In this document: positions 6,108 to 61,742 of the stretch, one piece after another
Position numbering within the stretch: the stretch's first letter is position 1
Layout: each line of letters begins with the position of its first letter
Translations under genes and position numbers: made by a program
Assembly (NCBI GenBank): GCA_003194525.1
Contig: NBIV01000012.1
Coordinates: 531,263 to 595,262 of the forward strand
Source of the DNA: Gracilariopsis chorda
Taxonomy: Eukaryota > Rhodophyta > Florideophyceae > Gracilariales > Gracilariaceae
Length of the DNA: 64,000 nt
Reading direction: 5' to 3'
The notes under the pieces: model-generated
What the model was told of the DNA's origin: nothing
The model's input: the letters and a program-made list of their open reading frames with translations, nothing else
The model's database searches: none

Positions 6108-7313
6108 TTAGCTAGCTTGCATTACTTCCGGATTCACAGCTTTCACATGGACAACAGCATCATAGATGTGAGCGTTATCTGGATCCTTAAACCATTTGAC
6201 AACAAACGGAACATCTCTCTTCTGGTTGAAAGCAAGCTTAAGAGTTTTCTCATCAATTCGTTCTGGTTCTTTGCGAAGGCTGGCCATGGACTTGAAGAAA
6301 TCAACAAGCTTTTCGAGCGGTTTCCCTTCCGGAAAGCCGGTGACAGTGATAGAGCAAGCCTCTTCATCAGGGTCTTTTTCCAGTTTGGCGGCGGCGGAAC
6401 CAGGGCTATCTTCCTCGTTGGGCTTTGCAAAGATTGCGGCCACATTATCTGGCATTTCAAAGTCCGGACCGTCAAGACGAGGATCGTGCTGCGGTGCCGT
6501 AAAGTTCCTTTCTTCCATGACAGCCCTTAAGTTCTCTTCATAGTCGGCGATGTATGGCGCTGGCTTCTCTTTTTCGGCACCTCGTCCACCACCACGACCG
6601 CCTCCACGGCCGCCGCGGCGACCGCGGCCTCCTCGACCGCGACCCCTCCCACCACGACCACCACCGCGGAATCCACCACCGTTATCGTATCCACCACCAC
6701 CATACCTGTCTGAACCTCGACCATAGCCACCGCCCATGTCACGATTGTTGGACGGGTAACCGTAGCCTCCACTCTGCCTGCGATCGTAGCCAGAGCGGTC
6801 ATAGCCAGGGCGGTCGTATCCGCTAGAGCCCTGGTAGCGGTCGCCATAGCCATTGTTTCCGCCGCGATTCATGTAGCGATCATCATGACGGCGACCATAG
6901 TCGGAGCGTCCTCCATAATCATAGCCAGCTGAACGAGCGTCGTACTGGTTGCGACGGTCACCATAAGCGCCAGAAGCTCCACCCATGTTGCCACCACGAC
7001 CATAGTCGTCACGTCTGGCGTACGGGTCACTGTGGCGATTATCAGCCTGTCGACGAGAGTCGTAGCCGTAAGCCTGCTGCTGGTTGCGATAGTCCTGGCG
7101 ACCGTAGTCTTCTCGGCCTCTGGAGCGGTACGGGTCAGCATAAGAGGCATCCTGCTGACGGTTGTAGTCATGCTCGGGATAACGTTGGCGCTTATTGTCC
7201 CTGTCGTAATCCTGGTATTCCCGATCGCGCTTCTGCGCGTAGGGGTCTTGTCTGTTTGAACGTGCGTAGGGGTCGCCCTGGGAGGCGTACGGATCTCTGC
7301 GGTAGTTGGACAT
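6108..7313 (-). CDS. RGG/DPYA-repeat low-complexity RNA-binding-type protein
   Basis: A 401-residue protein beginning at ATG 7313. The first ~140 residues are tyrosine/arginine/aspartate-rich with repeated DPYA, DYGR and YGD units. Residues ~175-245 are glycine/arginine-rich with many RGG and RGRG boxes. The C-terminal ~150 residues are non-repetitive and acidic (NLRAVMEERNFTAPQHDPRLD; CSITVTGFPEGKPLEKLVDFF), and the last ~85 residues could form an RRM-like alpha-beta fold, though no RNP motif is obvious. RGG boxes typically bind RNA and are arginine-methylated, so an mRNP or nucleolar role is likely. I do not recognise an orthologue. It is divergent from the bS1m gene at 8005 and has a pyrimidine-rich leader on its coding strand. 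Confidence 0.75.
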   Translation of the reverse strand: MSNYRRDPYASQGDPYARSNRQDPYAQKRDREYQDYDRDNKRQRYPEHDYNRQQDASYADPYRSRGREDYGRQDYRNQQQAYGYDSRRQADNRHSDPYARRDDYGRGGNMGGASGAYGDRRNQYDARSAGYDYGGRSDYGRRHDDRYMNRGGNNGYGDRYQGSSGYDRPGYDRSGYDRRQSGGYGYPSNNRDMGGGYGRGSDRYGGGGYDNGGGFRGGGRGGRGRGRGGRGRRGGRGGGRGGGRGAEKEKPAPYIADYEENLRAVMEERNFTAPQHDPRLDGPDFEMPDNVAAIFAKPNEEDSPGSAAAKLEKDPDEEACSITVTGFPEGKPLEKLVDFFKSMASLRKEPERIDEKTLKLAFNQKRDVPFVVKWFKDPDNAHIYDAVVHVKAVNPEVMQAS

Positions 7314-8004
7314 GGTGCTTTGTCAGAAAGGAGAAAAGAAGAACTACGCGAAGAAGAAAGGGAAAGTAAGAAGCTGTGTACCGCGGGTATCTGCGAGCTA
7401 CGAAGGCAGGCGAGCGGTACCTTTGTTACTGTTTGGGTGCGGATGCCCGCAGTTCTAGTGTGAGTGCGACACTAATGTTCGGGAGCGGGTCGCTTCGCGT
7501 TGTGCAGGTCAGTTCGCGCGGGAAATGAGTGGCAGTTTGTTTGCTCTAAGCGGCCGTGTGGTGGCGGCCGCAGCGGGCTCGATTCGTTTTGATCCCGCGC
7601 TTCGGCTGCACAGTACGAAGCGGAAGCATACAGTAGCGCCCGCGGCCAGAAGTATCGCGCTGTAATGTGCGCCCACAACGCCTAGAACCGCGCTGTCCAG
7701 CACCTCCGCGAAGATCTTGTTTTTCTGAAGAAGAGAAGGACGCAGAGATCCACACATTACACGTGTACGGAAATGTAAACGCTTCGCTCTTCGTGTCCGT
7801 CAAGCAACTGGAGGACCACTTTGATGATCAAAGTTTGATCAACCTGGTCCGAGATTTCACTGTGGCCAGGTGTTTGTCCTATGCTAAGATAGTAGTGCGG
7901 GCGAAGACCGGACGGATAGCCAAGGGTAAACGGTACCGTTGTACCCAAGTCTCAGCTGTCAAACTCCTTGAAACGATATACTTCGTGCCACATATTTAAA
8001 CTCA
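7314..8004. other. Head-to-head intergenic region (RGG protein / bS1m)
   Basis: This contains GGTACCGTTG at 7932-7941 and, on the coding strand of the RGG gene, a pyrimidine-rich leader at about 7325-7370. An open frame at 7667-7999 lacks any ATG and is not annotated. Confidence 0.55.
7932..7941 (-). promoter_or_regulatory. CAACGGTACC motif, 64 bases before bS1m ATG
   Basis: Minus-strand copy of CAACGGTACC. The surrounding ACCGTTGTACCC (7936-7947) also occurs exactly at 39683-39694, in another head-to-head region. Confidence 0.4.
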
Positions 8005-49120: not shown

Positions 49121-51306
49121 TCATGGGCTATACATCCCAACTAAATGGCCTGGAACAGCACTAGTTAGTAGCTTCTTGTTCGCCACTGTCTCGGACCGAT
49201 ATATATACGCATGTCCCTGCTGTCCGAACTTGAGGATATTTGTAAAGTCAGGGTTTCGTCCGAACCATAGTGTGAAGGGGTTCTTCATTTCTACTCGGTG
49301 ATTTTGTAGGCTGTTCCTTAGGTAGTTGGCATGCGAGATGGCTTCCTCCCATAGCTGGTGAGGCAAATTTGCAGCGAACAGGTAAGTTCGCGCCATCTTC
49401 CACAAGTCCTGGATTCTTTTCTCCGCGACACCGTTTGATTGATGCGGATACGGTGGAGTGAATTCAAGTATCATTCCGTCTCCATGGCATATGTGACGAA
49501 GTCTTCGGACCTATTCTCACCCGCCCCGTCAAGGCGAACGCGGTATATTCGGTTTGGAGAGAGTTCATTATCTGCGCGAGCCTTGTACCAACGTACTGAC
49601 TGAAAGAACTGAGTATTTTTGTCGAGAAAGTAAACGGAGCTTACCCTTGTTTTATCGTCAATAAGTACCTGCATGTAATTAGAACCTTGTAAGGAGCTCG
49701 GGGTTATGGGGCCGGTGAGGTCCGTGTGTTTTAGTTCCAATGGCTCTTCCGCGATCGAGTCAGATTGTCTGAGTGGAGCAAGTTTGGTACCAGCGTCGAT
49801 GCACAGGGTACAGGAAATATTGTTTACCGCTGTCGCGGATAGTGTGGGTACTCCATCACATTGGTTGATGCAAGATAGAAGCCGATCGCGACCGAGGTGT
49901 CCAAGTCCCTCATGCCAGTCCTTGGCAGTGTTGCCTGGAGAGCGTGACGCTGTTCGTGCGCGTGGGGGAGGCGTAGAACTTGGCAAATGGTAAAGTCCCT
50001 CCCTTGGCGTTGACTTGTAAAGTTCTTTTCCAGTTGAGCGATCTTTGATGATGAACATCGAAGCCTCTTGGCTGTTGGAAAATGTTAAGTCTACGTGCCT
50101 TGGAAGCACTGAGAGGGATACGAGGTTAGAGTCGAAAGATGGCGTATGCTTCGCAGGTAACAGTATCCCATTTCCAAGCGGTAGTCTTATCGTTCCAAAG
50201 CCTATTATCTCAAACGTGTGGTTACAAGTGTTTACTATTTTTAATGTACTGCGTTGGTAGTCCCAAAACAGGTCTCTCTCGTTGACGAAGACGTGACTTG
50301 CGCCTGAGTCTAGCCATGTTTGCATGCTGTCATCATAATGAAGACTTGCATTTGCTATGGCAACGAAACCTCGGTTTCGACCACCTTGCTGGCTGTTGTT
50401 GCGATTGTTATTTGCTTTTCGTGGGTTACGGTGCGTATCCCAGTTTCTGCTTGTGTTTAGGTTTCGGCCTCCGTGGTGGTTCATGTTCTGCTTGGAGTTC
50501 CGTTGAGTTTGTTGCCTCTTGTTGTGCGCTTGGTTCTTCTTTTGTGACCAGCACTCAGAACGGATTTTTCCTATTCTTCCGCACTTCCAGCACTGTACTC
50601 CTGTCTTTCTTCTTCGAGAGGGTTGCTTGCTCCGAATGGTAGACTTCTTTGCCGCAGAGTATGGGTGAATGCTGTCGTTGTTGGTTATTTTAGTCCTTAT
50701 GGAGGACGTTGAGGCTCTTTGTATTCGACGATCCATCTCTGAACGTACAAGTGATAGTACTTGGTCGTGCTCCATGTTCGTAGCATCTGCTAGTAGTGTT
50801 TTTGCCATGAGTGAGTCGGGTAAGGTGCGAAGCAGAGTGGCAGTTTGCTCTTGGTTCGTCAGTGGATCTCCAAGTCTGGCAAGTTCCAATTAAGTTGTTT
50901 CCAACTCAGTGAGGTGATCTTGTATGTCGTCACCATCTTTAACTGTTAAAGTGCTTAGCTTCTGCCGGAGGTTTAGTTTGGAAGGCATGTTATCCTTCTT
51001 GTATGGGGACCCAAGTTTCGTCCACACCTCCAAAGCAGAGCAGTACTCCCGTTCTAATAACTCGGAGACAGCAACGATAGGCTGCGTGCCCAAGTTCGGT
51101 ACGATGGCCGATCTTGCCTTCCGATCGGCCGTGTCGCATCGCTTGCGTGCTTGCGCGCTACCATCAGTTGGGCGTGGTTCTGTGAGCACGAAGAGTGCTT
51201 GCAAGCTCTGCATTATGTCCTGCACGTATATGCACCATGTGTAGTACTCGGCGTCCCCTTTTAGTCTGGGTATACGTTTGGTCTCATGATCTTTATCAAT
51301 GTCCAT
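49121..51306 (-). pseudogene. Copia gag, protease and integrase, broken
   Basis: Gag starts at ATG 51306 (LKGDAEYYTWCIYVQDIM). A TAA at 50890 interrupts the frame, which then continues (DPLTNQEQTATLLRTLPDSL) to a CCHC knuckle CWKCGRIGKIRSECW with the histidine lost. Protease active site is TWLDSGASHVFV. The GAG-pre-integrase is GLYHLPS...WHEGLGHLGRDRLL. Integrase acidic residues are in KHTDLTGPI, RLDGAGEN and, after a frame change at ~49474, SNGVAEKRIQDLW. Stop at 49121. Confidence 0.85.
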
Positions 51307-51593
51307 CGCGGAGTAAACTGTACGCGAGACGCAGATAAGGTGGCAGATAAAGTGTCTTCACCGGTTTCCTACCGGGGGAGGGATCCTTCTTTTACTTCTT
51401 GAACGTTCGGGGCCACTGGCAGCAGATGCTATCCCCGAATCCCTAAAGGTCAGACCCCTGGCTCCGAGTAAGACTCTCTCGGTGAGATGCGATTGTAACA
51501 GCCTGCCCAAGTTCTGCGCAATCCAGAACGAGGGTGCGTGTAGCGTATGGGATGTCCAGGAGAGGTTACTAACAGCAGGATATGTGTTCAACA
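51307..51593 (-). repeat. Candidate LTR (TGTTGAACAC start), owner uncertain
   Basis: On the minus strand a TGTTGAACAC sequence at 51593 looks like a retroviral-type LTR start (TG). It lies between the split gypsy integrase remnant (51594-51846) and the copia gag start (51306). It may be the gypsy 3' LTR or the copia 5' LTR. No second copy is visible in the window and the right-hand CA end is not defined. Confidence 0.3.
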
Positions 51594-51846: not shown

Positions 51847-51871
51847 TACGTCGGTGTTCTCGGAATGCTAG
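51847..51871 (+). repeat. Left terminal inverted repeat
   Basis: Reading inward: TACGTCGGTGTT, then C, then TCGGAATGCTAG. Matches the right end read inward except for one C/T difference at position 13. Confidence 0.75.
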
Positions 51872-52076
51872 ATAAGGGTGCTAGATCGCAAGTTTGTTAG
51901 GCAATCACTCAAAAAAACTACGAAAACGCTAGATTCTGCTAGTTCGTGGTGGTTGGCAAGCAAAAAAAAAAAATTTTCGGAAATCACTCTTTCATATTTT
52001 CTATTGTCATCCGTCCCTAGTACCGCACTTCGCTAGTTTCAAGTTTAGAGCAAGTTCTTTGCTCACTAAACGCTAG
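51867..52076. repeat. Subterminal GCTAG repeats
   Basis: Six GCTAG copies at 51867, 51880, 51928, 51938, 52032 and 52072. Short motifs repeated inside the ends are typical transposase-binding sites of CACTA-type elements. Two copies (as CTAGC) occur near the right end, at 59697 and 59807. Confidence 0.6.
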
Positions 52077-52290
52077 TTAGAGGGCTCGAAATGGCGCTGG
52101 CCGCGTAGCGGCCAGCGGCCCCACCCCCATGCAACCCAAATTAACTTACATATTTCCATCTCGTGGATTTCAAACTTCAAATTGTCAAAGTTTGGAGCCC
52201 AACTGTTCTCTCAGCCTCACTGGGTGGCACCCACACTCTTGAACACCAAACATAAAACCTCCCTTACCATCCTTACCATCCTTCTTCTCC

Positions 52291-53048
52291 TTATCCTCTC
52301 ATTCCACGCCTCCTCTTCAACCGACTCTCACCTTCTATTTCTTCGTCGTCCTTCTCCTCCAACCTCTTCCTTACAGCCCCTCGACCGGGAGTAACAGGAG
52401 TGCCTTCCCCGACAACAGCTCTCCCTTCCGCATCACACACCTTCTTCTGCATTTCCTCGATTAGATGCACAGCCCTACCAACCAGTAAAAGTTGCTTCTC
52501 CAACACCAAAACCCGTCTACGCATCTCCTCGTTCTCCTTCCACAGTCTCCTCAGCTCCTCACCCACACACGCCACAACCCCATCGACATGCATTTCCGCC
52601 CACACCCCAGCCTCCCTTGCCCTCCTACGCAGCTCAGCCACAGCACCCATAGGCACCCCTTCCTCTGAAGAACTCAGCACCATCCCCCCATCTCCACCAC
52701 AACCTCCTCGATACACTCATCCAAACGCTCCTTAAGCCCTCCGCCCACGCTCCTCACCAGTTTCTTCACATCGCGGTAAAACCGACTCATTCGCCCCGCC
52801 CCACCTCCTCCTCCTCCCCGTCCTCCTCGACTTCCCTCGCCCTCACTTCCCTCCCCCCCATCCCCTCCCATCATCGTCCCAACCCCAAGCTCCCCGAACC
52901 CAACAACGTTCCTTCCCTTGCCCTCTTCACCATCACCCTTCCCTTCCTCCTCCTTCTTCGTCCTTGGAGGCGTCTCGGGGACCTCCCTCTTCTCCGCTTT
53001 ATCCAACAACGCCAGTAGCTCCTCATCATTCACGTCTTCGCTAGACAT
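52291..53048 (-). CDS. Transposon cargo: coiled-coil/Gly-rich protein, frame shifted once
   Basis: Two overlapping minus-strand frames appear to be one gene. The first starts at ATG 53048 (MSSEDVNDEELLALLDKAEK), then runs acidic and Gly-rich to a helical stretch RMSRFYRDVKKLVRSVGGGL and a stop at 52674. The second, one base out of step, continues from the overlap at 52674-52716 with AVAELRRRAREAGVWAEMHV and the coiled coil LRRLWKENEEMRRRVLVLEK, ending basic (SRLKRRRGMRG). The break lies at a G6 run (about 52688); one inserted base would join them. A 41-base intron with GT..AG ends is formally possible but too short to trust. No family recognised. Located inside the 8-kb transposon, transcribed with the transposase strand. 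Confidence 0.5.
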
Positions 53049-53290
53049 GGCTACTACACGCCCCACCACAACGGCGCTCCCGTTCCTAACCCAACCACCA
53101 AGCGAGCACTCCCCAGGTACTTATCCAACCGCATTTTTTCACTCGCCCGTTTTCGCGCCATTTCCCACCGAGTCGTGTCCCACCAATAATCTGAAACGAA
53201 AAATTTAGAACGACATTAGTTTAACACTTCCTTCAGTTTACAACTCTATCACACTAACTTAGGTATGTACAGGTAGAACTACGAACGTGT

Positions 53291-54154
53291 CTAAAGAAAT
53301 GGTTCAAAACGAGAACCAACAGGCCTACAGTGCTCTCCTAGATTCGCAACATACCTTCGAAAATGGTACTCCAAGTCCATATCCACAGCCATACCCAAAA
53401 GAAGCAGCACGAAAAAGATAGTATTCTCCACTACAGGCGCGAGTCCCCTTACCTTGTGCAAAGAAGTATCGCTCAGGAACGTGAAAATCAAGTAGGTAAA
53501 CACAACAGGGAACACCCTTCCGATATAGAGCCTCATAGTAGCCACACCATCTCTAAACCCAAGCACCTTATTCAAACCACCGTATACGGTCCTGCACACA
53601 TCCAAAATCAGCCCAACACTACCTCTCTGCACATATGGGAGCTCTCTCTCATTGTTAATGCTGGCCCTAGTCACAAAAAACATCGTTAGCCGTTCAACCA
53701 CATACGACATACCCCCAAACATGAAACCACCAGTGAAAAATGCAAGAGCACCAGTCCTAAGTTCCATTCCAATCGAAATTGGCGCTTCCAAGAAGTGATA
53801 GCCAACAAAAATACAAACATTCAACGGCAAAAGACCTGCCATCGTGAATCCAAGTAGTCTGTTTCGAATCACAGAAATCCGTGCCATTCGCTGGCTGTCC
53901 CGCAAAGGTACGTATGCCAATGAACCAAAATGCCTTCTATGCAATGCAAACACCATATCGAAGATAAACAAATGCAAAACAGTCTCCAGAATTACCACAA
54001 TCAACATCTTCGGAGACATTCGAACATCCCCTACCACATAATGCATCAAAAGCGGTTTCAATACCCCATAAAGAGCACCAATGGCTAATGAAAACAGAAA
54101 CGCATATGCGCACCAAGCCCATGCTTTTCGCTTTTCCTCGCGTAGTCGGCATTT
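53291..54154 (-). CDS. Transposon cargo: polytopic membrane protein
   Basis: The frame is open from 54154 to the stop at 53291 (287 residues) and has about six hydrophobic segments (AYAFLFSLAIGALYGVL, MLIVVILETVLHLFIFDMVF, LLGFTMAGLLPLNVCIFVGY, GALAFFTGGFMFGGMSYV, VFPVVFTYLIFTFL, NTIFFVLLLLGMAVDM). It has no ATG before MHYVVGD (residue 38), and the codon before 54154 is TAG after a CATAG acceptor-like site. A first exon 54395-54357 (MNLMVVRKRLQFH) with donor GTATTT would splice in phase. That model is tentative. No family recognised. It lies inside the 8-kb transposon. Confidence 0.45.
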   Translation of the reverse strand, partial: KCRLREEKRKAWAWCAYAFLFSLAIGALYGVLKPLLMHYVVGDVRMSPKMLIVVILETVLHLFIFDMVFALHRRHFGSLAYVPLRDSQRMARISVIRNRLLGFTMAGLLPLNVCIFVGYHFLEAPISIGMELRTGALAFFTGGFMFGGMSYVVERLTMFFVTRASINNERELPYVQRGSVGLILDVCRTVYGGLNKVLGFRDGVATMRLYIGRVFPVVFTYLIFTFLSDTSLHKVRGLAPVVENTIFFVLLLLGMAVDMDLEYHFRRYVANLGEHCRPVGSRFEPFL

Positions 54155-54457
54155 CTATGTCAGGCCTTCGCAGCGAAGCGGATTTCCTGGGACAATGCTT
54201 CTTCGTCTTCGTAGAACTCTTATTCCGGCCGAGAACCACGCTGCAATCTTGAAGCGTTCGCGTGATCAAGTTGTCGTGGCACCCAGTCGCGTAAGATGCT
54301 CTCGTGATCACGTCTGCTCGGTTCAGGCGACGTGAGCATCTATACTTTTGAAATACATGGAATTGAAGACGTTTCCTGACAACCATTAAGTTCATTTAGG
54401 CGGCGCTGCAATGCACCTGTAATGATTTTGCATTGGTATTCGAAGTTTGTTTTTGGG

Positions 54458-54543
54458 GGTGGAGGTCCGTGGACCGGAGTGTCGTGGCGCTTCATCAGGC
54501 GCCTGATGAAGCGCCACGACACTCCGGTCCACGGACCTCCACC
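54458..54543. repeat. Perfect 86-bp palindrome with no spacer
   Basis: Two 43-base arms are exact reverse complements and meet at AGGC|GCCT (54500/54501). The outermost pairs are GGTGGAGG / CCTCCACC. It sits in the middle of the 8-kb transposon, between the membrane-protein and methyltransferase genes. In RNA it would form a continuous hairpin. Confidence 0.95.
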
Positions 54544-54566
54544 ACGTGGCGGCCAGCAGTTCCGAA

Positions 54567-54677
54567 AATCAAAAAATTAGTTTAAAATTAGTGTCTGGAA
54601 TGAACGGACATCTGCGGTACGACCTAGTAGGTCATGGGCGGAAGATGCATGGTTCATTTTACACTAATTTTTTGATT
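54567..54677. repeat. MITE-like foldback, 14-bp perfect ends
   Basis: AATCAAAAAATTAG (54567-54580) and its exact reverse complement (54664-54677) bound a 111-base segment. ATTAGTGT and ACACTAAT pair again inside, and GACCTAGTAGGTC (a palindrome) is near the centre. No coding capacity; no clear target duplication. It abuts the 5' end of the methyltransferase frame. Confidence 0.6.
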
Positions 54678-56502
54678 ATCTGAACAGCTGGGTGGGGATA
54701 ATGAGGTCGAAGAGGTGGTGGAGAGTGTGGCTGCTCCAAGAGCTACTACTGGTCTGCAGACAACGACATTGTCTCAGAGACTGACGTACAGCGTGAAGGA
54801 GACTGGTGTTCAACCTCCACCGTATCCGAAGACTTTAGATCAGTTGATGTCGTACGAGTACTGTGAGAGGCAGATGTCCCGCAGCTTCCGTCTTCACAAC
54901 TGCAGTTTCCAAGACCTTGTCGAAGTCGACGACAACAAGTCCGGGGACAGCGAACTATCCATTGAAGGAAGGGTACAGTTCGTGCTTTCGGATCCCCCAT
55001 ATGGGACTCGTGCGGAGCGTAATCGGGAGAACAGTGGTCATGATGTTCTCACCGAGAAGACCATGGCCCGGGCAGGGAAAAGAATTTCAAAGTTGCTACG
55101 TCCCGGTGGGCATGTTATATTGTTCTGCTCGTGGGATCAGATACAGAAGTGGCGGGAGGTGCTGCGGAGTGTTACGTACACAGATGACTCTGGCACAACT
55201 CGTTTTTCTTTTGTCGTGGACGAACAACCCCTCCAGTTCGTACGATCCATGGGGAACTCGATGGGTAATCCGGGAAGGCGGAGCTGTCGGCTGTACCAGA
55301 CGTCGGAGTATGCCGTACATGCAGTGCGCTCTGGGGTCCCGTATTCCCAACAGCACAGAATGGTGAACTATGAGAACTTTAATTTTATCCCTTCACGCTA
55401 CCCGGCATATCACGCAATCATAGACCAGGTGCCGCCTATGTCTTATGGCGAAACTCTGCTATGGAATGTGACAAACTCGGAGAGAATCACTACGAGGAAA
55501 AAGGTGCGACCGGAACAGAAGTGTAGGGCATTGCTGAAGGAACTCATTTGCAGGTTTAGTCAGCCAGGAGACCTAGTGGTTGACCTCTTTGCGGGGACGT
55601 TCTCTACAGCGATGGCATGCATGGAACTGCCGAAGCACCGGATATTTGTAGGATGTGAAGACGATAAAGCTTGCTTTGAACACGCAAAGCATGCTGCTAT
55701 TGTTCGTTTTGCTTCTATAATCCGGGAGGGAAACACCAATCTTGAGAAGAACCAAGAGCTCAGGAAGATGGCCCATACTGTTGTCATCGCATTTCCAATG
55801 GGCAGATTGAGGCATACCTTGTCATGGAAGGCAGTCAATGGCTTTTCTCCGTACCAGATGCTTCCCCCACACGTCGTCCAGTTCCTGTCGACGCTGTGGA
55901 GAAGTGAAGAGGTAGCCAAATTGGGTAAGAGCAGGACCTTCGATCAATGGCCTAGCGTGCTGCAGGGTAGGATGAATATGGAGAACATGAACTCGCTGCT
56001 GGCAATGGAAGCTGTGCATTATGGACTACGAATCAGCAAGTCTACTATTCGCCACAATAACGCTGGTGTTGGAGTGTTTGCAACTCGTCTAATTGCTGTA
56101 GGGGAGGTAGTGTGCTACTTCTATGGGACACTCGTGTATCATGATCTGACGAACCGTAAAGAAGTGCACAAGACCTACGGGGACGGAGTTATGGGTGTGA
56201 CGAAGGATCGCTTTCGAAAATATGCGGTGGAGGTGGATGTTCATGGGCATCAGTTCTCTGCACTACCTCATCGGAGAACACTGAACCATGGAAAACAAAC
56301 AAACCCGATTCTTTGGGTTGTTCCAGCTCCGTTTTGTGTTGCAGGGTATATTAACGACCCTAAGTATGTCGAAGGCGATAAGGACTTAGATGCTACGGTA
56401 GATGGCCTTGTGAAAAAGCGTGAGGCTAACGTGCGGATGAAACGTTCACCTGGCCTAGGGCGGCACGGGAAAAGTTGTTTTCGCTACTTGGGTATGACTT
56501 GA
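54676..56502 (+). CDS. Beta-class amino-methyltransferase fused to SET domain (transposon cargo)
   Basis: About 600 residues in one frame. DPPY (54991-55002, in VQFVLSDPPYGTR) is the catalytic motif IV of N6-adenine/N4-cytosine DNA methyltransferases. The SAM-binding motif I, DLVVDLFAGTFSTAMACMEL (~55570-55625), comes after it, as in the permuted beta class (CcrM-like). From ~56020 a SET domain begins: LRISKSTIRHNNAGVGVFAT, IAVGEVVCYFYGTLVYHDL, then GYINDPKY. It is cut by a frame change at the GGGAAAAG run (~56470). The SET end (LIARRVRPQEGTELDV) follows in the next frame (56475-57032). No ATG lies before the Met at 54847, and the frame opens inside the foldback at 54676, so the true N-terminus is unclear. 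Likely targets: transposon DNA and perhaps histone or another protein lysine. Convergent with the transposase. Confidence 0.75.
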   Translation, partial: LSEQLGGDNEVEEVVESVAAPRATTGLQTTTLSQRLTYSVKETGVQPPPYPKTLDQLMSYEYCERQMSRSFRLHNCSFQDLVEVDDNKSGDSELSIEGRVQFVLSDPPYGTRAERNRENSGHDVLTEKTMARAGKRISKLLRPGGHVILFCSWDQIQKWREVLRSVTYTDDSGTTRFSFVVDEQPLQFVRSMGNSMGNPGRRSCRLYQTSEYAVHAVRSGVPYSQQHRMVNYENFNFIPSRYPAYHAIIDQVPPMSYGETLLWNVTNSERITTRKKVRPEQKCRALLKELICRFSQPGDLVVDLFAGTFSTAMACMELPKHRIFVGCEDDKACFEHAKHAAIVRFASIIREGNTNLEKNQELRKMAHTVVIAFPMGRLRHTLSWKAVNGFSPYQMLPPHVVQFLSTLWRSEEVAKLGKSRTFDQWPSVLQGRMNMENMNSLLAMEAVHYGLRISKSTIRHNNAGVGVFATRLIAVGEVVCYFYGTLVYHDLTNRKEVHKTYGDGVMGVTKDRFRKYAVEVDVHGHQFSALPHRRTLNHGKQTNPILWVVPAPFCVAGYINDPKYVEGDKDLDATVDGLVKKREANVRMKRSPGLGRHGKSCFRYLGMT

Positions 56503-57032
56503 TAGCAAGACGTGTGAGACCTCAGGAGGGGACGGAGCTTGATGTGGAATTGAAGAAGCAGTTAGAGGAAGCGAGAAGCAAGTTAATGGGAAAGGAGGTA
56601 GAGAAGAGCCGAATCTTATGTGCATGGAGAATGAGTGCGATTGACGATCTTACATATTCTGGATTTCAAGTTGCTCGAAGGTTAAGGGACTTTGGTGGGG
56701 AGGACATGTACTTTAAGAACGGAGCTGCGGTAGAAGTGCTGGCAGAGTTTATGGGATATGAGGTGGTACCGGGAGGCGAAGGGAAGACAGATTATGTGGA
56801 TGGAACTGTGATGCATTTGGCACGCTTGGATGCTTGGATCGGATGTGTTTTGACTGCGTTGGACACGAATGTGGGCCGTGGAGGAAAACGGCAGTTATTG
56901 TTTTCAAAGTTGTTTGGTGAGTATCTCCCGCTTGCTCTGGAGAACATAATTGGGGTGGCATGGGAGAGAGTGAGGGAACGGCACCATGAGGAATTGGAGA
57001 ATGTTTGGATGTCTTGGAGTAGTGAGATTTGA
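56475..57032 (+). CDS. C-terminal continuation of the methyltransferase-SET protein (next frame)
   Basis: This frame starts without ATG and directly continues the SET domain: LFSLLGYDLIARRVRPQEGTELDVELKKQLEEA. It then has about 140 residues of mixed composition (MSAIDDLTYSGFQVARRLRD, VEVLAEFMGYEVVPG, LDAWIGCVLTALDTNVGRGG) that I do not recognise. One extra base around 56470 would fuse it to the upstream frame. Its last ~280 bases overlap, on the opposite strand, the degenerate C-terminal coding of the transposase. Normal residue composition here, against a Pro/Ser-rich opposite frame, favours this strand being the coding one. Confidence 0.5.
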   Translation: MFSLLGYDLIARRVRPQEGTELDVELKKQLEEARSKLMGKEVEKSRILCAWRMSAIDDLTYSGFQVARRLRDFGGEDMYFKNGAAVEVLAEFMGYEVVPGGEGKTDYVDGTVMHLARLDAWIGCVLTALDTNVGRGGKRQLLFSKLFGEYLPLALENIIGVAWERVRERHHEELENVWMSWSSEI

Positions 57033-59261
57033 AGAGGACGTGGGCATGTTCGAATATGCCTGCGTCGTTGAAGTGCAGACCTCCGTATCTACGTATGTCG
57101 TCGACGATGTGATCGAGGAGATGGAACTTGAGGGTACCGAGGTGCGAAGAGTGGTAGGGTCCGAGGACGGTGGTGGCTCTGAGTTTGAAGGATCTGATCT
57201 GTCGTTCGAGTGATTTGAGAGAGTCTTCGGTCCATTCGGAAGTGGAGTTGTATCGCATGGCGTAGAGAACGAGATCTGTGTACTTGGTGAAGACGGAAGT
57301 GATTGGGGAGGAGTCGATTTCGTTGCAGCATCTGTCGAAGAATGCTCCGATGAAGGGGAATACCATGTCGAGTGCGCGGTAATCTTTTGCTTCGAGCATT
57401 CCACGGAGTCCTTCTGTGGTGAAGAAGCCGTTAAGAGCTTGAGCGTTGTCGGAGGTGGAGAAGTCTATGTGGAGTCCAGTTGCAGGGAATCTTTTTCGAT
57501 GGCCGCAAGAATGGAGTTGGAGTGTTTGAGGATGGAGGTGCGGATGGATTGGAAGGATCTCTTGGATTTGCTGGGACCGACAATGGAAAGAGGGAATCGG
57601 ATCGGAGACGTTCGATTGCGGTGGCTTTGATGAGTTTAGAGACGCCGAGGTGGAAGTTATGCAGTGGCTCGAAGGCGAAGATGTTGTAAGAAGAGAGAAG
57701 CGGAGTGATGTTGAAGATGGGTATGATTCGAAGAGAGAAGTGTACTTTGCGAGGGAGAGAGAATGAAGTGCTGTTGCTGCCTCTTCTTTTTTGGTGCGTG
57801 CCACTTTTGGTTTCCGGGCGAGTTGCGCTTCCTCGGATTCGCGGAGAAGGCAGGTGTGCTGTCTGCGATTGGTTCGAGTTTGGAGTTGTGTGCGGAAGGG
57901 GATGGGATCTGTATTGAGGAAGAGGTGTTCCCGAGGGACGGTGCATCTCGGGCAAGGGTGCTGCGGCCGTGTTCCGTGGGAGATGGCGAGGATGTCCTTT
58001 GCTTCGGGGATGTCTGCGCAATAGCTGGCGAGGATGGGGTGGCAGTGGCGGAGGACACCGTGAGCGTCACGGAAGGAGAATCCTGGGAGCGCAGAGGTGA
58101 GGAGTGGGTTGAGGATGGTAGAGATGGCGCGCTGAATGAGGTTCATTTTGGTCTCGCGTGGGATGTTGGAGGATGATTTCGGGACGTAGTCGCCGCCGTC
58201 GTCGAAGGCGGTAAACGGGGAGAAGGAGGTTGGAAGGTATCCGAGGAGTGTGAGATTTTCGGATATACACTTTCGGCGGAGGGCATCGGAGAAGTTGAGA
58301 AACGTGACGTGGAGGGGGTAGGAATTGACGGAGGAGCTTTTCAGGGAGGTTGCGGACTTGTCCGAGTAGAGCTGGACGAGGCCGATGAATGATTCGATAC
58401 CGGTTTCCTGGGGGTGTGCCAGACGATGTCATCGACGGGGGACTGCATAATTTCCTGTTTGATGGCTGGGACGACTTTCTTTCCGAGGGCTGCAGCCATG
58501 GGATGTGCGAAAGCCGGGTGACCAGAAGACGAAGAAGATGAGGAAGATTGAGATACCGGCTGGAAGAAGGTGTTGTTGAGGTGTGCGAGTGCGAGTTGTT
58601 GCTTGAGGACGTCGATGGCACGTTTCTGGAAGAGGGTTGCGGAGAAGGTGTTGCGCTTGTCTGTGATGGTGGAAGGGATGAAGCCGTTGGAGCTGATGCG
58701 TTGCTTGAAGAGGTCCTCTTGCAGTGCGAGGCACTGCCTGGCGGAGGAGATGGAGGTCTGGAAGGAGGACTTGGAGAAGTCTGGATGGTTGAGGATGGAG
58801 ATGAGCTCGTCTGCTTTGCGGGTGCTGACGGAGGATGCGATGGAGGAGATGTAGAGGACGAGTTGTTCGAGATGAGGGTTGTCGGCGAGAGGGGAAGGGG
58901 AACGAGAAGGGGGCGGGAGAAGGGGGTTTGAGGAGGAGACGGAGCCGATGGCGTGACTTGCGATATGGTAAGCGTCTTGGGTTTGAAGAGAGAGGGAAGC
59001 CTGTTGAAGTTCATATGGATCATCATCGGCGAGGGGGACGTTGTCGGAAGGACGGTGAGAGGGAAGGGGAGGAGAATTGATGGAGAGGTTGGGAACGGAT
59101 TTTCGCTTCTTGGTCCTGGGAGGGAACTGAACTGGAGCGGTGGCTGTGGAGGAGGAACGCTTGTTGGCGGTGAGGCGATGGTGGCACCTGCGTTGGTGAC
59201 TCTGAAGAGAGTATGTGGTGCGGCCGTGGAAGGAACAGCGAGGGTAGCAACAGGGGAACAT
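56749..59261 (-). pseudogene. Plavaka/CACTA-like transposase, several frame breaks
   Basis: From ATG 59261: an N-terminal zinc finger (MFPCCYPRCSFHGRTTYSLQ with later HQRRCHH), a disordered region, then KSVDDIVWHTP-type sequence. After a one-base shift at a C5 run (~58430) come ETGIESFIGLVQLYSDKS, ENLTLLGYLPTSFSPFTAFD and GVLRHCHPILASYCADIPEA..PCPRCTVPRE, hallmarks of Plavaka-type transposases. Another shift (~57725) leads to YNIFAFEPLHNFHLGVSKLI. Later ALNGFFTTEGLRGMLEAKDY and FHLLDHIVDDIRRYGGLHFN..FEHAHVLFK lie in the second frame. Each break needs one added base. Order and motifs are convincing, but the ORF as given cannot make a full protein. Confidence 0.8.
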
Positions 59262-59600
59262 GGTGCGGGAAGGAGAGTTGAAGGATTGGAAGGAGAAAGG
59301 GGAGCAAAGGGGTTGTTGGAGAGCGAAATGCGGGAGCGTAATTATTATGGCGCACGGGGATGAAGTGGAGCAGGTGATGCCGAGCGTTTTGCGCTGGCTC
59401 GTGGACTGGTGCATGCTATGCAAGGCCGCAGACACTGACAACGAGTGAAGGATAGCGAGGGCTATCATGTTTTGTAAACTCTAATGTATTTCCTATATAT
59501 GTATTTATCTGAGCATCCTATCCTTCTATTTGAAGGGGCAGTTTCCGGTGGTCCGGTCAGATTTTCAATCTCACGTTCACATGTGAAGGTATGTAGTAGT

Positions 59601-59634
59601 GGAGTCTGGACTCCACTTCGCGGAGTCCGGACTC
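59601..59634. repeat. Tandem pair of palindromes (GAGTCYGGACTC)
   Basis: GAGTCTGGACTC and GAGTCCGGACTC stand 12 bases apart, inside the 8-kb element between the right terminal repeat and the transposase start. Possible binding site or hairpin in the transposase leader. Confidence 0.6.
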
Positions 59635-59806
59635 GGTTTTTGGTCCGAAATAACTTGGAAATGTGAAGTGCTTTACTAGTTTATACTTTCAAAAAACTAG
59701 CAGTGTTGAATGTGTGAAAATATTTTGATGGAAATTGATTCATTCAAAAGTGGGTTTTAAGAGTCGATATCCGTCCATTTCAATTCTTTCCCTTTTGATT
59801 GTCAAA

Positions 59807-59831
59807 CTAGCATTCCGAAAACACCGACGTA
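59807..59831 (-). repeat. Right terminal inverted repeat
   Basis: The reverse complement matches 51847-51871 in 24 of 25 positions. Immediately to its right the gypsy integrase frame (NLFTT) begins. Confidence 0.75.
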
Positions 59832-60468
59832 GTCGTGAACAAGTTCTTGACATCCAAGATGCGACAAACATCCTGGAAGAACTTGCTCACGAACTGTTTC
59901 CCGTTATCGGAGAGCACCTCCACAGGGGGACTGTAGACAAAAATCCAGTGCGTCACCAGAGCCTGGGCCACCGTGAGAGCGGTTATCCTCCGAAGAGGGA
60001 CAGTCCGTACCAGCTTAGAAAAGCGGTCGGTGATGACAAGTAGAAATTTGATTCCACGTTTTGTGGTGAGTAATGGTCCGAGAAAATCAATTGCGATAAA
60101 CTCGAGTGGCGCCCTTGCGGGAATAGTTTCATCTTCTTCGCATTTTTGCGGAGCTTGACGCAATTCGTCGCGCATTCGCTACAGAATCGCACAGTTGCGT
60201 AGCAATCCACCGCCATGGCGGGCCAATAGAAATCCCTTCGCAGGGTTAGGTAGAGTTTCCTCCCACCTGGGTGACCTCCGATGGGGGCGTAGTGTGATAG
60301 ATGTAACACCCGCGATTGCAGGGAATGAGGTACCACAATCTGTGGGCAGGCTTCGACCTTCCTTACGAGGTAGCCTTTGTCGTTCACACCGAAAGGGAGA
60401 TCTTCACCACCGTTGATACCGGCACGAACCCTCGTACAGAATGGGTCGCCGAATTGTTCTCGGATCAT
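59832..60468 (-). pseudogene. Gypsy integrase (zinc finger and core), truncated by insertion
   Basis: H2C2-type zinc region GGRKLYLTLRRDFYWPAMAV...FCSECATNC, then after a frame change the core PLEFIAIDFLGPLLTTKRG, FLLVITDRFSKLVRTVPLR, VEVLSDNGKQFVSKFF. The first two catalytic aspartates are visible; the glutamate would lie beyond the insertion point. Confidence 0.85.
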
Positions 60469-60607
60469 TTCTTCCGGTGATACCGGTACAAAGTTCCCCT
60501 GTAACGGGTTCTCAGATTTATCTCGCGATGCGAGTAGTCGTCAAAATCAGCATCCTCGTCCCAGGTTTCTGGCCTAGCCTCGACGGCATATTCCGGATCA
60601 TCCGGGT

Positions 60608-61742
60608 CTATAGCCATGAAGCATGGGACTTCATCATCCTCCGTTGGGAGTGCTTCCCACTTGTGGGTAACCGCGACAAAGCGTCGGCCTGGGTGTTCTG
60701 CGCACCCTTTTTTATAAATGACTTGAAGTCATATTCCGCGAGGCGGAGTCTCCAGCGCATGAGGCGTCCCGACGGGTCGGAGATATTCATCAACCACCTC
60801 AATGAGGAATGATACGTGTACACGGTGAAGTGAATTCCCATAAGGTAGGGGCGCAGAGTGGTCATCGCCCATACGACGGCGAGGCACTCTTTCTCCGATA
60901 CGGAGTAGTTCCGCTCATGAACATTGAGCGAACGTGACCAATAACCAATTGGATGTCGTTCCCCCTCGGGGGTGGTTTGAAAAAGAGCACACCCGACTTG
61001 GTAGTCGCTCGAGTCCGTATCTACGGAGTATGGCAACCCAAGTTTTGGGAGATGTAGGATTGGTGCTGATGTGACAGCCTCCTTCAAGGAGTTAAAGGCT
61101 TCCGATTGCTCGGGCGTAAATGTTCCCAGTTTTGGGGGCTCCCCTTTCGCAACAACGCGTTCAGGCGCCGCAGTATCCGAAAAGTTCGGGATAAACCGTC
61201 GATAGACGTTGACACAGCCCCAGAAAGGAGCACAGTTCCGTTTTAGTACGGGGCTCTTTGGCCTCAACGAGGGATTTGACTCGAGCTTTCTCGATCGCTA
61301 ACCGTCCAGGACGGATAATGTGACCCAGATACTTCACAGTATCTGTGAAAAACTCGCATTTCCTCAACACTTGAGGGTAATCCCGCATCGCGGAGTACGG
61401 TCAGGACGTCTCGGACGTGAGTGAGATGGTCGTCCAACGAGTTGGAGAAGATGATAAATATCACAAGGTAGACCATACAACTCCGCCACTTAAAGCGGTT
61501 GAGTAGAGTATCTACTGCACGCTGGAAGGTGGCGGGGGCGTTGGTTACCCAAATGGCATCCGCTTGAAGCGGTACGTTTCCTGCATGGCAGGTGAATGCG
61601 GTTTTGTTGCGATCCTCCTGTCTGACAGGTAATTGCCAATATCCCCAATTGGCATCAAGGGCCGTGAACACGGTGGCGTCTCCAAAGGGATGTCAATGCA
61701 CTCGTCCATACGAGGGATGGGGTACGTGTCCCTAACAGTCAC
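60608..61742 (-). pseudogene. Gypsy reverse transcriptase and RNase H, broken
   Basis: RT: VRDTYPIPRMDECID, MFTALDANWGYWQLPV, NAPATFQRAVDTLL. The YLDD site reads MVYLVIFIIFS, so both aspartates are lost. Then LGHIIRPGRLAIE and RNase H PYSVDTDSSDYQVGCALFQ, WSRSLNVHERNYSVSEKECL, QADALSRLP. At least three frame changes. Confidence 0.85.

What the first reader, a model, noticed from the sequence alone, without database searches (positions are those of the whole stretch)
54676..57032. DNA transposon cargo gene fusing a beta-class DNA methyltransferase to a SET domain
DPPY (54991-55002) precedes the FAG-type SAM motif (~55582-55596), the permuted order of bacterial CcrM-like enzymes. The same frame continues into a SET domain (AGVGVFAT, GYINDP, and in the next frame LIARRVRPQEG). 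I know of no described enzyme that joins an amino-DNA-methyltransferase to a SET domain. Its place between transposon ends suggests it marks or hides the element's own DNA and chromatin. The combination seen is direct; the role is inference.
Basis: partly seen in the sequence, partly recalled or inferred. Interest (0 to 1): 0.9.

Follow-up and report, generated by a model that had tools for sequence, protein, structure and literature searches.

The report
Transposon-borne DNA methyltransferase fused to SET
A family of jumping genes in a red seaweed carries one long protein that joins a bacterial-type DNA-methylating enzyme to a histone-methylating (SET) domain, so a mobile element may write marks on both its DNA and its chromatin; the copy in this window is a cut-down version.

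The parts
51849..59829 (.). whole DNA transposon, internally deleted copy (7,981 bp; the relative with an intact MTase-SET gene on contig C53 is 11,851 bp)
51847..51848 (.). 2-bp target site duplication (TA), left
   Evidence: 2-bp duplications in 7 of 7 copies with both ends read
51849..51871 (+). left terminal inverted repeat CGTCGGTGTTCTCGGAATGCTAG
59807..59829 (-). right terminal inverted repeat (1 mismatch to the left one)
59830..59831 (.). 2-bp target site duplication (TA), right
54697..56461 (+). truncated MTase-SET gene (frame 54676-56502): complete PF01555 domain, SET without its last 52 residues; the first 420 residues of the intact protein are missing
54991..55002 (+). methyltransferase motif IV, DPPY
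   Evidence: DPP in 26 of 26 aligned sequences
55582..55596 (+). SAM-binding motif I, DLFAG (order IV before I = beta class)
56062..56361 (+). N-terminal and middle part of the SET domain (AGVGVFAT ... GYINDP)
56458..57003 (+). part of ORF2 (the 'next frame' of the finding, frame 56430-57032), brought next to SET by a deletion with 4 bp of overlap at the joint
54458..54543 (.). perfect 86-bp palindrome upstream of the MTase-SET gene; palindromes stand at this place in the other subfamilies too, with other sequences
56749..59480 (-). decayed Plavaka-type transposase (frames 56749-58428 and 58341-59480), C-terminal part deleted
   Evidence: PF18759 E 1.4e-20; intact 1,160-aa copy E 2.7e-21
52291..53120 (-). 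remains of a 276-aa open frame that is whole in the C53 copy

Best explanation
A Plavaka-transposase DNA transposon family of the red alga G. chorda carries, as a long-standing gene and not a passing passenger, a bifunctional epigenetic writer: N-terminal conserved region, CcrM-like beta-class DNA amino-methyltransferase, then a SET lysine methyltransferase domain in one polypeptide. Shown: the gene structure, the two folds (predicted), transposition of the unit, and purifying selection on both halves. Inferred: the protein methylates an exocyclic amino group (N6-adenine more likely than N4-cytosine, from DPPY and the closest structures) and a lysine (histone H3/H4 most likely), is brought to the element through its palindrome arrays and partner proteins, and so keeps the element's promoter chromatin active or hidden from the host's silencing. 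The window copy has lost the N-terminal region and the SET end and can make at most a methyltransferase.
Against: No activity, mark, expression or localisation was measured. Catalytic motifs decay in some lineages: G. chorda subfamily 3 has DAPY (2 of 2 loci) and subfamily 4 DAPT (1 locus) in place of DPPY, and four relatives of one clade have no Pfam SET match, so both activities are not always kept. The SET NH pair reads ND (N in 23, D in 22 of 26). Foldseek TM-scores for the SET model were modest (0.27-0.36 by query length in the 50 rows shown). Subfamily 4 was seen without a Plavaka match on its 15.9-kb contig. Eleven of 40 transposase places and 21 of 76 gene-D places had no MTase partner in my partial lists. 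Whether the Chondrus gene lies in a transposon was not seen.
Confidence: 0.5

Rival explanations
1. The methyltransferase serves transposition itself, as Dam methylation does for some bacterial transposons (recalled): it marks the element's ends or palindromes so that the transposase or the partner gene acts only on fresh or hemimethylated DNA; the SET domain modifies a protein partner or is a scaffold.
For: Linkage of MTase-SET, ORF2 and transposase; palindromes are natural two-strand methylation targets; a clade keeps MTase with degenerate SET.
Against: The SET half is under equally strong constraint in the G. chorda elements; subfamilies 3-4 seem to have lost motif IV; no shared short motif stands out in the four arrays.
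Confidence: 0.2
2. The protein is a self-limiting silencer: DNA amino-methylation plus a repressive histone mark keep the family at tolerable copy number, parallel to the bdelloid N4CMT/SETDB1 partnership but in one enzyme.
For: In bdelloids a PF01555 enzyme works with silencing marks on transposons (PMC8885841, abstract and passages); many decayed copies present.
Against: Element-encoded modifiers are read as counteraction to silencing in the introduction of PMC12730594; the structural neighbours include PRDM9, MLL and COMPASS (H3K4, by title or recall) as well as H4K20 and H3K27 enzymes, so the mark cannot be read from the fold.
Confidence: 0.15
3. Passenger: a host MTase-SET gene was captured by chance and has no role in the element.
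For: Transposons do capture genes; the window element itself holds a 1-kb insert that C53 lacks. I did not examine whether any of the 72 places is a lone host gene.
Against: dN/dS 0.16-0.18 along the element lineages; the same neighbours in subfamilies only a third identical in MTase-SET protein.
Confidence: 0.06
4. Artefact: bacterial contamination or a misassembly that joins two genes.
For: Names given to G. chorda pieces are bacterial (CcrMI, YhdJ).
Against: Copies on many contigs of one assembly, with terminal repeats and target duplications in 7 of 7 read; the same fusion in Chondrus crispus and other records; 64 of 64 prokaryote loci found match only the MTase part.
Confidence: 0.01

Closest known systems
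CcrM and other bacterial beta-class N6-adenine methyltransferases (PF01555; also M1.HpyAVI, M.RsrI, MboIIA)
   Same: fold, motif order IV then I, DPPY/F, EQK and FxG motifs
   Different: none of the 64 prokaryotic and 16 viral loci found here extends into SET
Bdelloid rotifer N4CMT (PMC8885841, abstract and passages seen)
   Different: N4CMT has a chromodomain (reader) and is a host gene; here a SET domain (writer), inside a transposon
TET/JBP-carrying Plavaka/KDZ and other fungal DNA transposons (PMC12730594, introduction and passages seen)
   Same: Plavaka-type transposase with an epigenetic enzyme as cargo, 2-bp target duplications
   Different: cargo is a dioxygenase there; here a DNA MTase-SET; termini differ (CGTCG..CGACG); host is a red alga
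HarbingerS and Phytophthora MuDR elements encoding a SET methyltransferase (cited in PMC12730594)
   Same: DNA transposon with a SET gene
   Different: SET alone as far as the citation says, other transposase superfamilies; those reports themselves were not seen
DIRS (Dam-like) and dinoflagellate/charophyte DNMT retrotransposons (PMC5890265, passages seen)
   Same: mobile elements that carry a DNA methyltransferase
   Different: retrotransposons; Dam-like or C5 enzymes; no SET mentioned in the passages seen
SETMAR/Metnase (title and start of abstract of PMC8327481 in a listing)
   Same: SET domain joined to a transposon-related protein
   Different: SET-transposase fusion in a host gene (recalled), no DNA methyltransferase

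Membership tests
beta-class DNA amino-methyltransferase (PF01555) | profile match above cut-off | tested here: met
   68.2 bits (window copy) and 66.8 (intact), cut-off 26.7; E up to 0.01 in 26 of 26 aligned sequences
beta-class DNA amino-methyltransferase (PF01555) | motif IV (DPPY) N-terminal to motif I (FxG) | tested here: met
   alignment
beta-class DNA amino-methyltransferase (PF01555) | CcrM-like fold | tested here: met
beta-class DNA amino-methyltransferase (PF01555) | DNA methylation in vitro or in vivo; base methylated | not testable with these tools
   needs assay or long-read data
SET lysine methyltransferase | PF00856 match above cut-off | tested here: met
   intact copy 23.3 bits against 22.4; the window copy itself is below, 15.6
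SET lysine methyltransferase | SET fold | tested here: met
SET lysine methyltransferase | catalytic tyrosine near the C-terminus | tested here: met
   Y1038 in 22 of 26 (its catalytic role is assigned by recall); lost in the window copy
SET lysine methyltransferase | NH(S) motif | tested here: not met
   reads IND in the query; N in 23, D in 22 of 26. PRDM9, recalled as active, also lacks the H
Plavaka transposon | PF18759 transposase | tested here: met
   76.6 bits, cut-off 26.3
Plavaka transposon | 2- or 3-bp target site duplication | tested here: met
   2 bp in 7 of 7 copies with both ends read
Plavaka transposon | termini TGT..ACA (PlavakaA) or CATCA..TGATG (PlavakaB), as given in PMC12730594 | tested here: not met
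   CGTCG..CGACG: so neither published fungal lineage
Plavaka transposon | C(2)C and H(3-4)H between catalytic D and E | tested here: inconclusive
   CPRC and HLLDH present but D/E positions were not assigned
N4CMT (bdelloid) | chromodomain attached to PF01555 | tested here: not met
   no chromodomain in Pfam at E up to 1
HarbingerS | Harbinger transposase with SET cargo | tested here: not met
   the only transposase profile matched in the four element frames scanned is Plavaka

The most novel reading that the evidence does not exclude
A self-addressed epigenetic operating system carried by a transposon: MTase-SET writes DNA amino-methyl and histone marks in one step at a fast-changing palindrome array that is each subfamily's own address, while the divergently transcribed partner gene (with motifs that resemble ParB, DGxHR, and a 2-oxoglutarate dioxygenase, HxD..H..R, both by eye only) binds the array or removes marks. 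It would, to my knowledge, be the first enzyme that couples DNA and histone methylation catalysis in one chain, and a class of mobile element that encodes its own chromatin state.
Probability: 0.2. Interest if true: 0.95.

Novelty: new variant of a known kind. Interest (0 to 1): 0.82.

Why it matters
Transposons are known to carry single epigenetic enzymes. This one carries a single chain with both a DNA and a histone methyltransferase fold, present in two red algal orders (G. chorda, C. crispus) and in unnamed records, and under selection in both halves in G. chorda. It makes the question 'do DNA and histone marks need to be written together for a transposon to escape, or obey, silencing?' directly testable with one gene, and gives a candidate source of non-5mC DNA methylation in red algae.

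Tried and rejected
Rejected: SET continuing in the next frame (it is ORF2). Rejected: simple frameshift (it is a deletion). Rejected, within the reach of the scans: prokaryotic or viral origin of the whole fusion (none of 64 prokaryote and none of 16 viral loci found reaches the SET part; both scans start from two short conserved patterns, so distant ones could be missed). Whole-model fold search could not test SET or the N-terminal part (the MTase filled the list), so SET was folded alone; the N-terminal ~430 residues were not searched alone and stay untested. No short motif shared by the four palindrome arrays stands out. Partner gene D: no Pfam match at E up to 10 for the whole protein and only chance-level rows for its pieces; no PDB row for the whole and no credible one for profiles of its pieces; the ParB and dioxygenase likeness is from motifs I recalled. 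ORF2 has no Pfam match at E up to 1 and its own-genome search did not complete. A genome search with the subfamily-4 protein did not complete. Literature: ten searches in open-licence PMC only, judged from listings; closed papers and Repbase reports could already mention the Chondrus gene. Lee et al. 2018 on G. chorda was not seen; known only through a review passage (PMC8566409).

Full report
What is in the window. The frame 54676-56502 (+) encodes 608 residues. Pfam finds PF01555 (N6_N4_Mtase) at E 1.3e-18 and SET at a sub-threshold 0.023. Sequence comparison with solved structures finds bacterial beta-class adenine methyltransferases first. The frame is not a complete gene: its first ATG is at 54847, after the first 420 residues of the intact protein have been lost.

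The element. Window 51849-59829 is bounded by 23-bp inverted repeats with a TA duplication. I read the ends of four further copies of the window type (C37, C232, C64, C144), of the C53 copy and of an old copy on C332. Duplications are AC, TA, AG, CG, AT and AG, with the window's TA: 7 of 7 copies with both ends read have matching 2-bp duplications (the terminal repeats of the old C332 copy are themselves eroded). One more copy tried (C281) ran off its contig on the left and was not counted. The C53 copy, 11,851 bp, is nested in another DNA transposon with 161-bp perfect inverted repeats. I call C53m the reverse complement of G000:C53:82000-101800 and C332m that of G000:C332:17000-36800. C53m carries a 276-aa frame (-), MTase-SET (1,065-aa frame, 1,060 from its ATG, +), ORF2 (821-aa frame, +) and a Plavaka transposase (1,160-aa frame, -; PF18759 E 2.7e-21). 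C53 lacks gene D (below), so it is not complete either.

Why the window copy looks odd. Against C53m it is collinear except for three deletions and one extra stretch. The first deletion removes residues 1-420 of MTase-SET. The second removes its last 52 residues, the stop codon and the first part of ORF2, with a 4-bp overlap at the joint. The third removes the end of ORF2 and the transposase C-terminus. A 1.06-kb stretch (53414-54474) has no counterpart in C53m; it holds the start of gene D and most of a 287-aa hydrophobic frame. So 'LIARRVRPQEG' belongs to ORF2.

How many copies. A six-frame search of the own genome gives 73 rows (72 places): 28 rows at 96-100% identity and 45 at 55-74%; 72 of 373 candidates were scored. 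Five places show the 1,065-aa frame, one of them with an internal TGA. The PF01555 profile gives 150 matches, 150 of 175 candidates scored. The transposase search gives 43 rows, 40 of 405 candidates scored. Leaving out three fragment rows, 23 of 40 transposase places lie convergent to and within 8 kb of an MTase-SET row (23 of 73 rows), in a few gap classes. With the PF01555 list six more are paired, 29 of 40; eleven stay unpaired. All lists are partial.

Host. Database proteins named Gracilariopsis chorda lie on contigs of 637,882 and 78,213 bases, the lengths of C10 and C314 here. The window is therefore most likely from this red alga (Florideophyceae, Gracilariales). The genome itself carries no name.

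The fusion is a conserved protein family. A search with residues 430-1060 of the intact protein finds 26 proteins at E up to 0.001. The best, P0001, is 96% identical and may be from the same or a sister species. I aligned 25 of them with the query; P0026 (1,497 aa, 39% coverage) was left out. PF01555 is found in 26 of 26 aligned sequences and SET in 22 of 26. The four without, P0014, P0017, P0018 and P0021, form one supported clade. One relative is named, from Chondrus crispus (Gigartinales), as 'adenine specific DNA methyltransferase'; the others have no name in the output. Invariant residues include D519-P-P, E693-Q-K, D716, G720 in the methyltransferase and G897, Y914, F966, N998, I1028 in the SET part; N973 is in 23 of 26 and Y1038 in 22 of 26.

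Selection. Nei-Gojobori dN/dS between one young copy (L018) and six old copies (of 45 rows) is 0.16-0.18 overall, 0.15-0.18 for the methyltransferase, 0.12-0.19 for the compared SET part and 0.20-0.24 between them. The six comparisons share most of their history and dS is near 1. Among the six old copies it is 0.56-0.91 (15 of 15 pairs). This is the pattern of a gene kept by selection while the element spreads and decaying after insertion.

Depth of the association. The 71-74%-identity subfamily, read on C332m, has MTase-SET, ORF2 (58% over its main part) and transposase (65%) in the same order. A third subfamily (32-33% identical in MTase-SET) has the transposase (49%) at one locus and ORF2 (42%) at another (L115, L120). 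A fourth (C637, 35%) has gene D upstream but helicase-like and zinc-finger-like frames downstream (Pfam scores below cut-off) and no Plavaka match. In the midpoint-rooted tree the four G. chorda subfamilies, P0001 and P0002 form one supported clade, apart from the Chondrus sequence. In subfamily 3 DPPY reads DAPY (2 of 2 loci) and in subfamily 4 DAPT (1 locus), so their DNA methylation is doubtful.

The promoter side. A further gene, D (1,417-aa frame in L121), is transcribed away from MTase-SET. Of 76 gene-D places (104 rows, fragments merged by hand), 55 have a PF01555 match in divergent orientation within 8 kb, 21 have none in the list, and none has one on the same strand. Between the two genes lie long palindromes: an 86-bp perfect one in the window, and different sequences in each of four subfamilies (one locus each), with no 10-base word shared by three or more. 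Gene D has two database relatives. L121, P0044 and P0045 share HTD...H...R, and these three with C637 share DGxHR. These recall 2-oxoglutarate dioxygenases and ParB, but Pfam and PDB profile searches do not support either name.

Mechanism. What is shown is composition, predicted fold, mobility and selection. The step from there to 'the element writes marks on itself' rests on precedent: transposons carrying SET genes, TET/JBP or sequence-specific anti-silencing proteins (PMC12730594 introduction), DNA-methyltransferase retrotransposons (PMC5890265 passages), and a PF01555 enzyme that marks transposons in bdelloid rotifers (PMC8885841 abstract and passages). I rate the anti-silencing or self-marking reading at about 0.5, transposition control at 0.2, and self-silencing at 0.15.

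Novelty. Each half has been seen in mobile elements, and Plavaka elements are known to carry TET/JBP (PMC12730594). I found no report of an amino-DNA-methyltransferase fused to SET in the listings of ten searches of the open library (named under Tried and rejected). That does not cover closed journals or Repbase. I file it as a new variant of the known kind 'transposon-borne epigenetic enzyme', with a domain architecture that is new as far as those searches reach.

Noticed in passing
L121:450-4703 (-), L034:3338-4750 (+), L118:1887-5517 (-); start piece in window 53937-54395 (-): Partner gene D, transcribed away from MTase-SET; 55 of 76 places have a divergent PF01555 match, 0 on the same strand. 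Motifs DGxHR and HxD..H..R recall ParB and 2OG-Fe(II) dioxygenases, but no profile supports this.
   Followed up: partly
window 54458-54543; C53m 6277-6596, C332m 6999-7860, C637 6190-7260, C435 34810-35045 (C53m, C332m: reverse complements of C53:82000-101800 and C332:17000-36800): Long palindromes between gene D and MTase-SET in four subfamilies, each with its own sequence.
   Followed up: partly
whole genome G000: No match to C5-cytosine methyltransferase profiles PF00145 (E up to 0.001) or TIGR00675 (E up to 10) (the control genomes that rang, 10 of 14 each, are prokaryotes), although a review says about 8% of the G. chorda genome is methylated, mostly non-CG (PMC8566409 passage). Intron-split genes or assembly gaps could hide one; 4mC read as 5mC by bisulfite is a testable alternative.
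   Followed up: partly
window 53414-54474: Stretch absent from the C53 element; holds most of a 287-aa hydrophobic open frame (53291-54154, -) without Pfam match, perhaps a captured gene piece.
   Followed up: partly
C637 (L116, L118, L119): Subfamily-4 MTase-SET with motif IV as DAPT, followed by zinc-finger-like and DEAD/helicase-like frames and no Plavaka match: possibly another kind of element.
   Followed up: partly
P0014, P0017, P0018, P0021: One clade keeps the methyltransferase but has a SET part that Pfam does not recognise, the opposite loss to subfamilies 3 and 4.
   Followed up: partly
L031+L032 (C53:82000-101800): The C53 element is nested in a DNA transposon with 161-bp perfect inverted repeats whose frames look (by eye) like a MULE with an Ulp1-type protease.
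   Followed up: no
window 49471-51357 (-) and 59807-61297 (-): Copia-like and gypsy-like retrotransposon remains flank the element (named by eye); the insertion appears to split a gypsy-type integrase.
   Followed up: no
P0030, P0033, P0035, P0036, P0037 (database): Pieces related to these elements are named in G. chorda 'Modification methylase CcrMI', 'DNA adenine methyltransferase YhdJ' or hypothetical proteins, with no SET listed.
   Followed up: no
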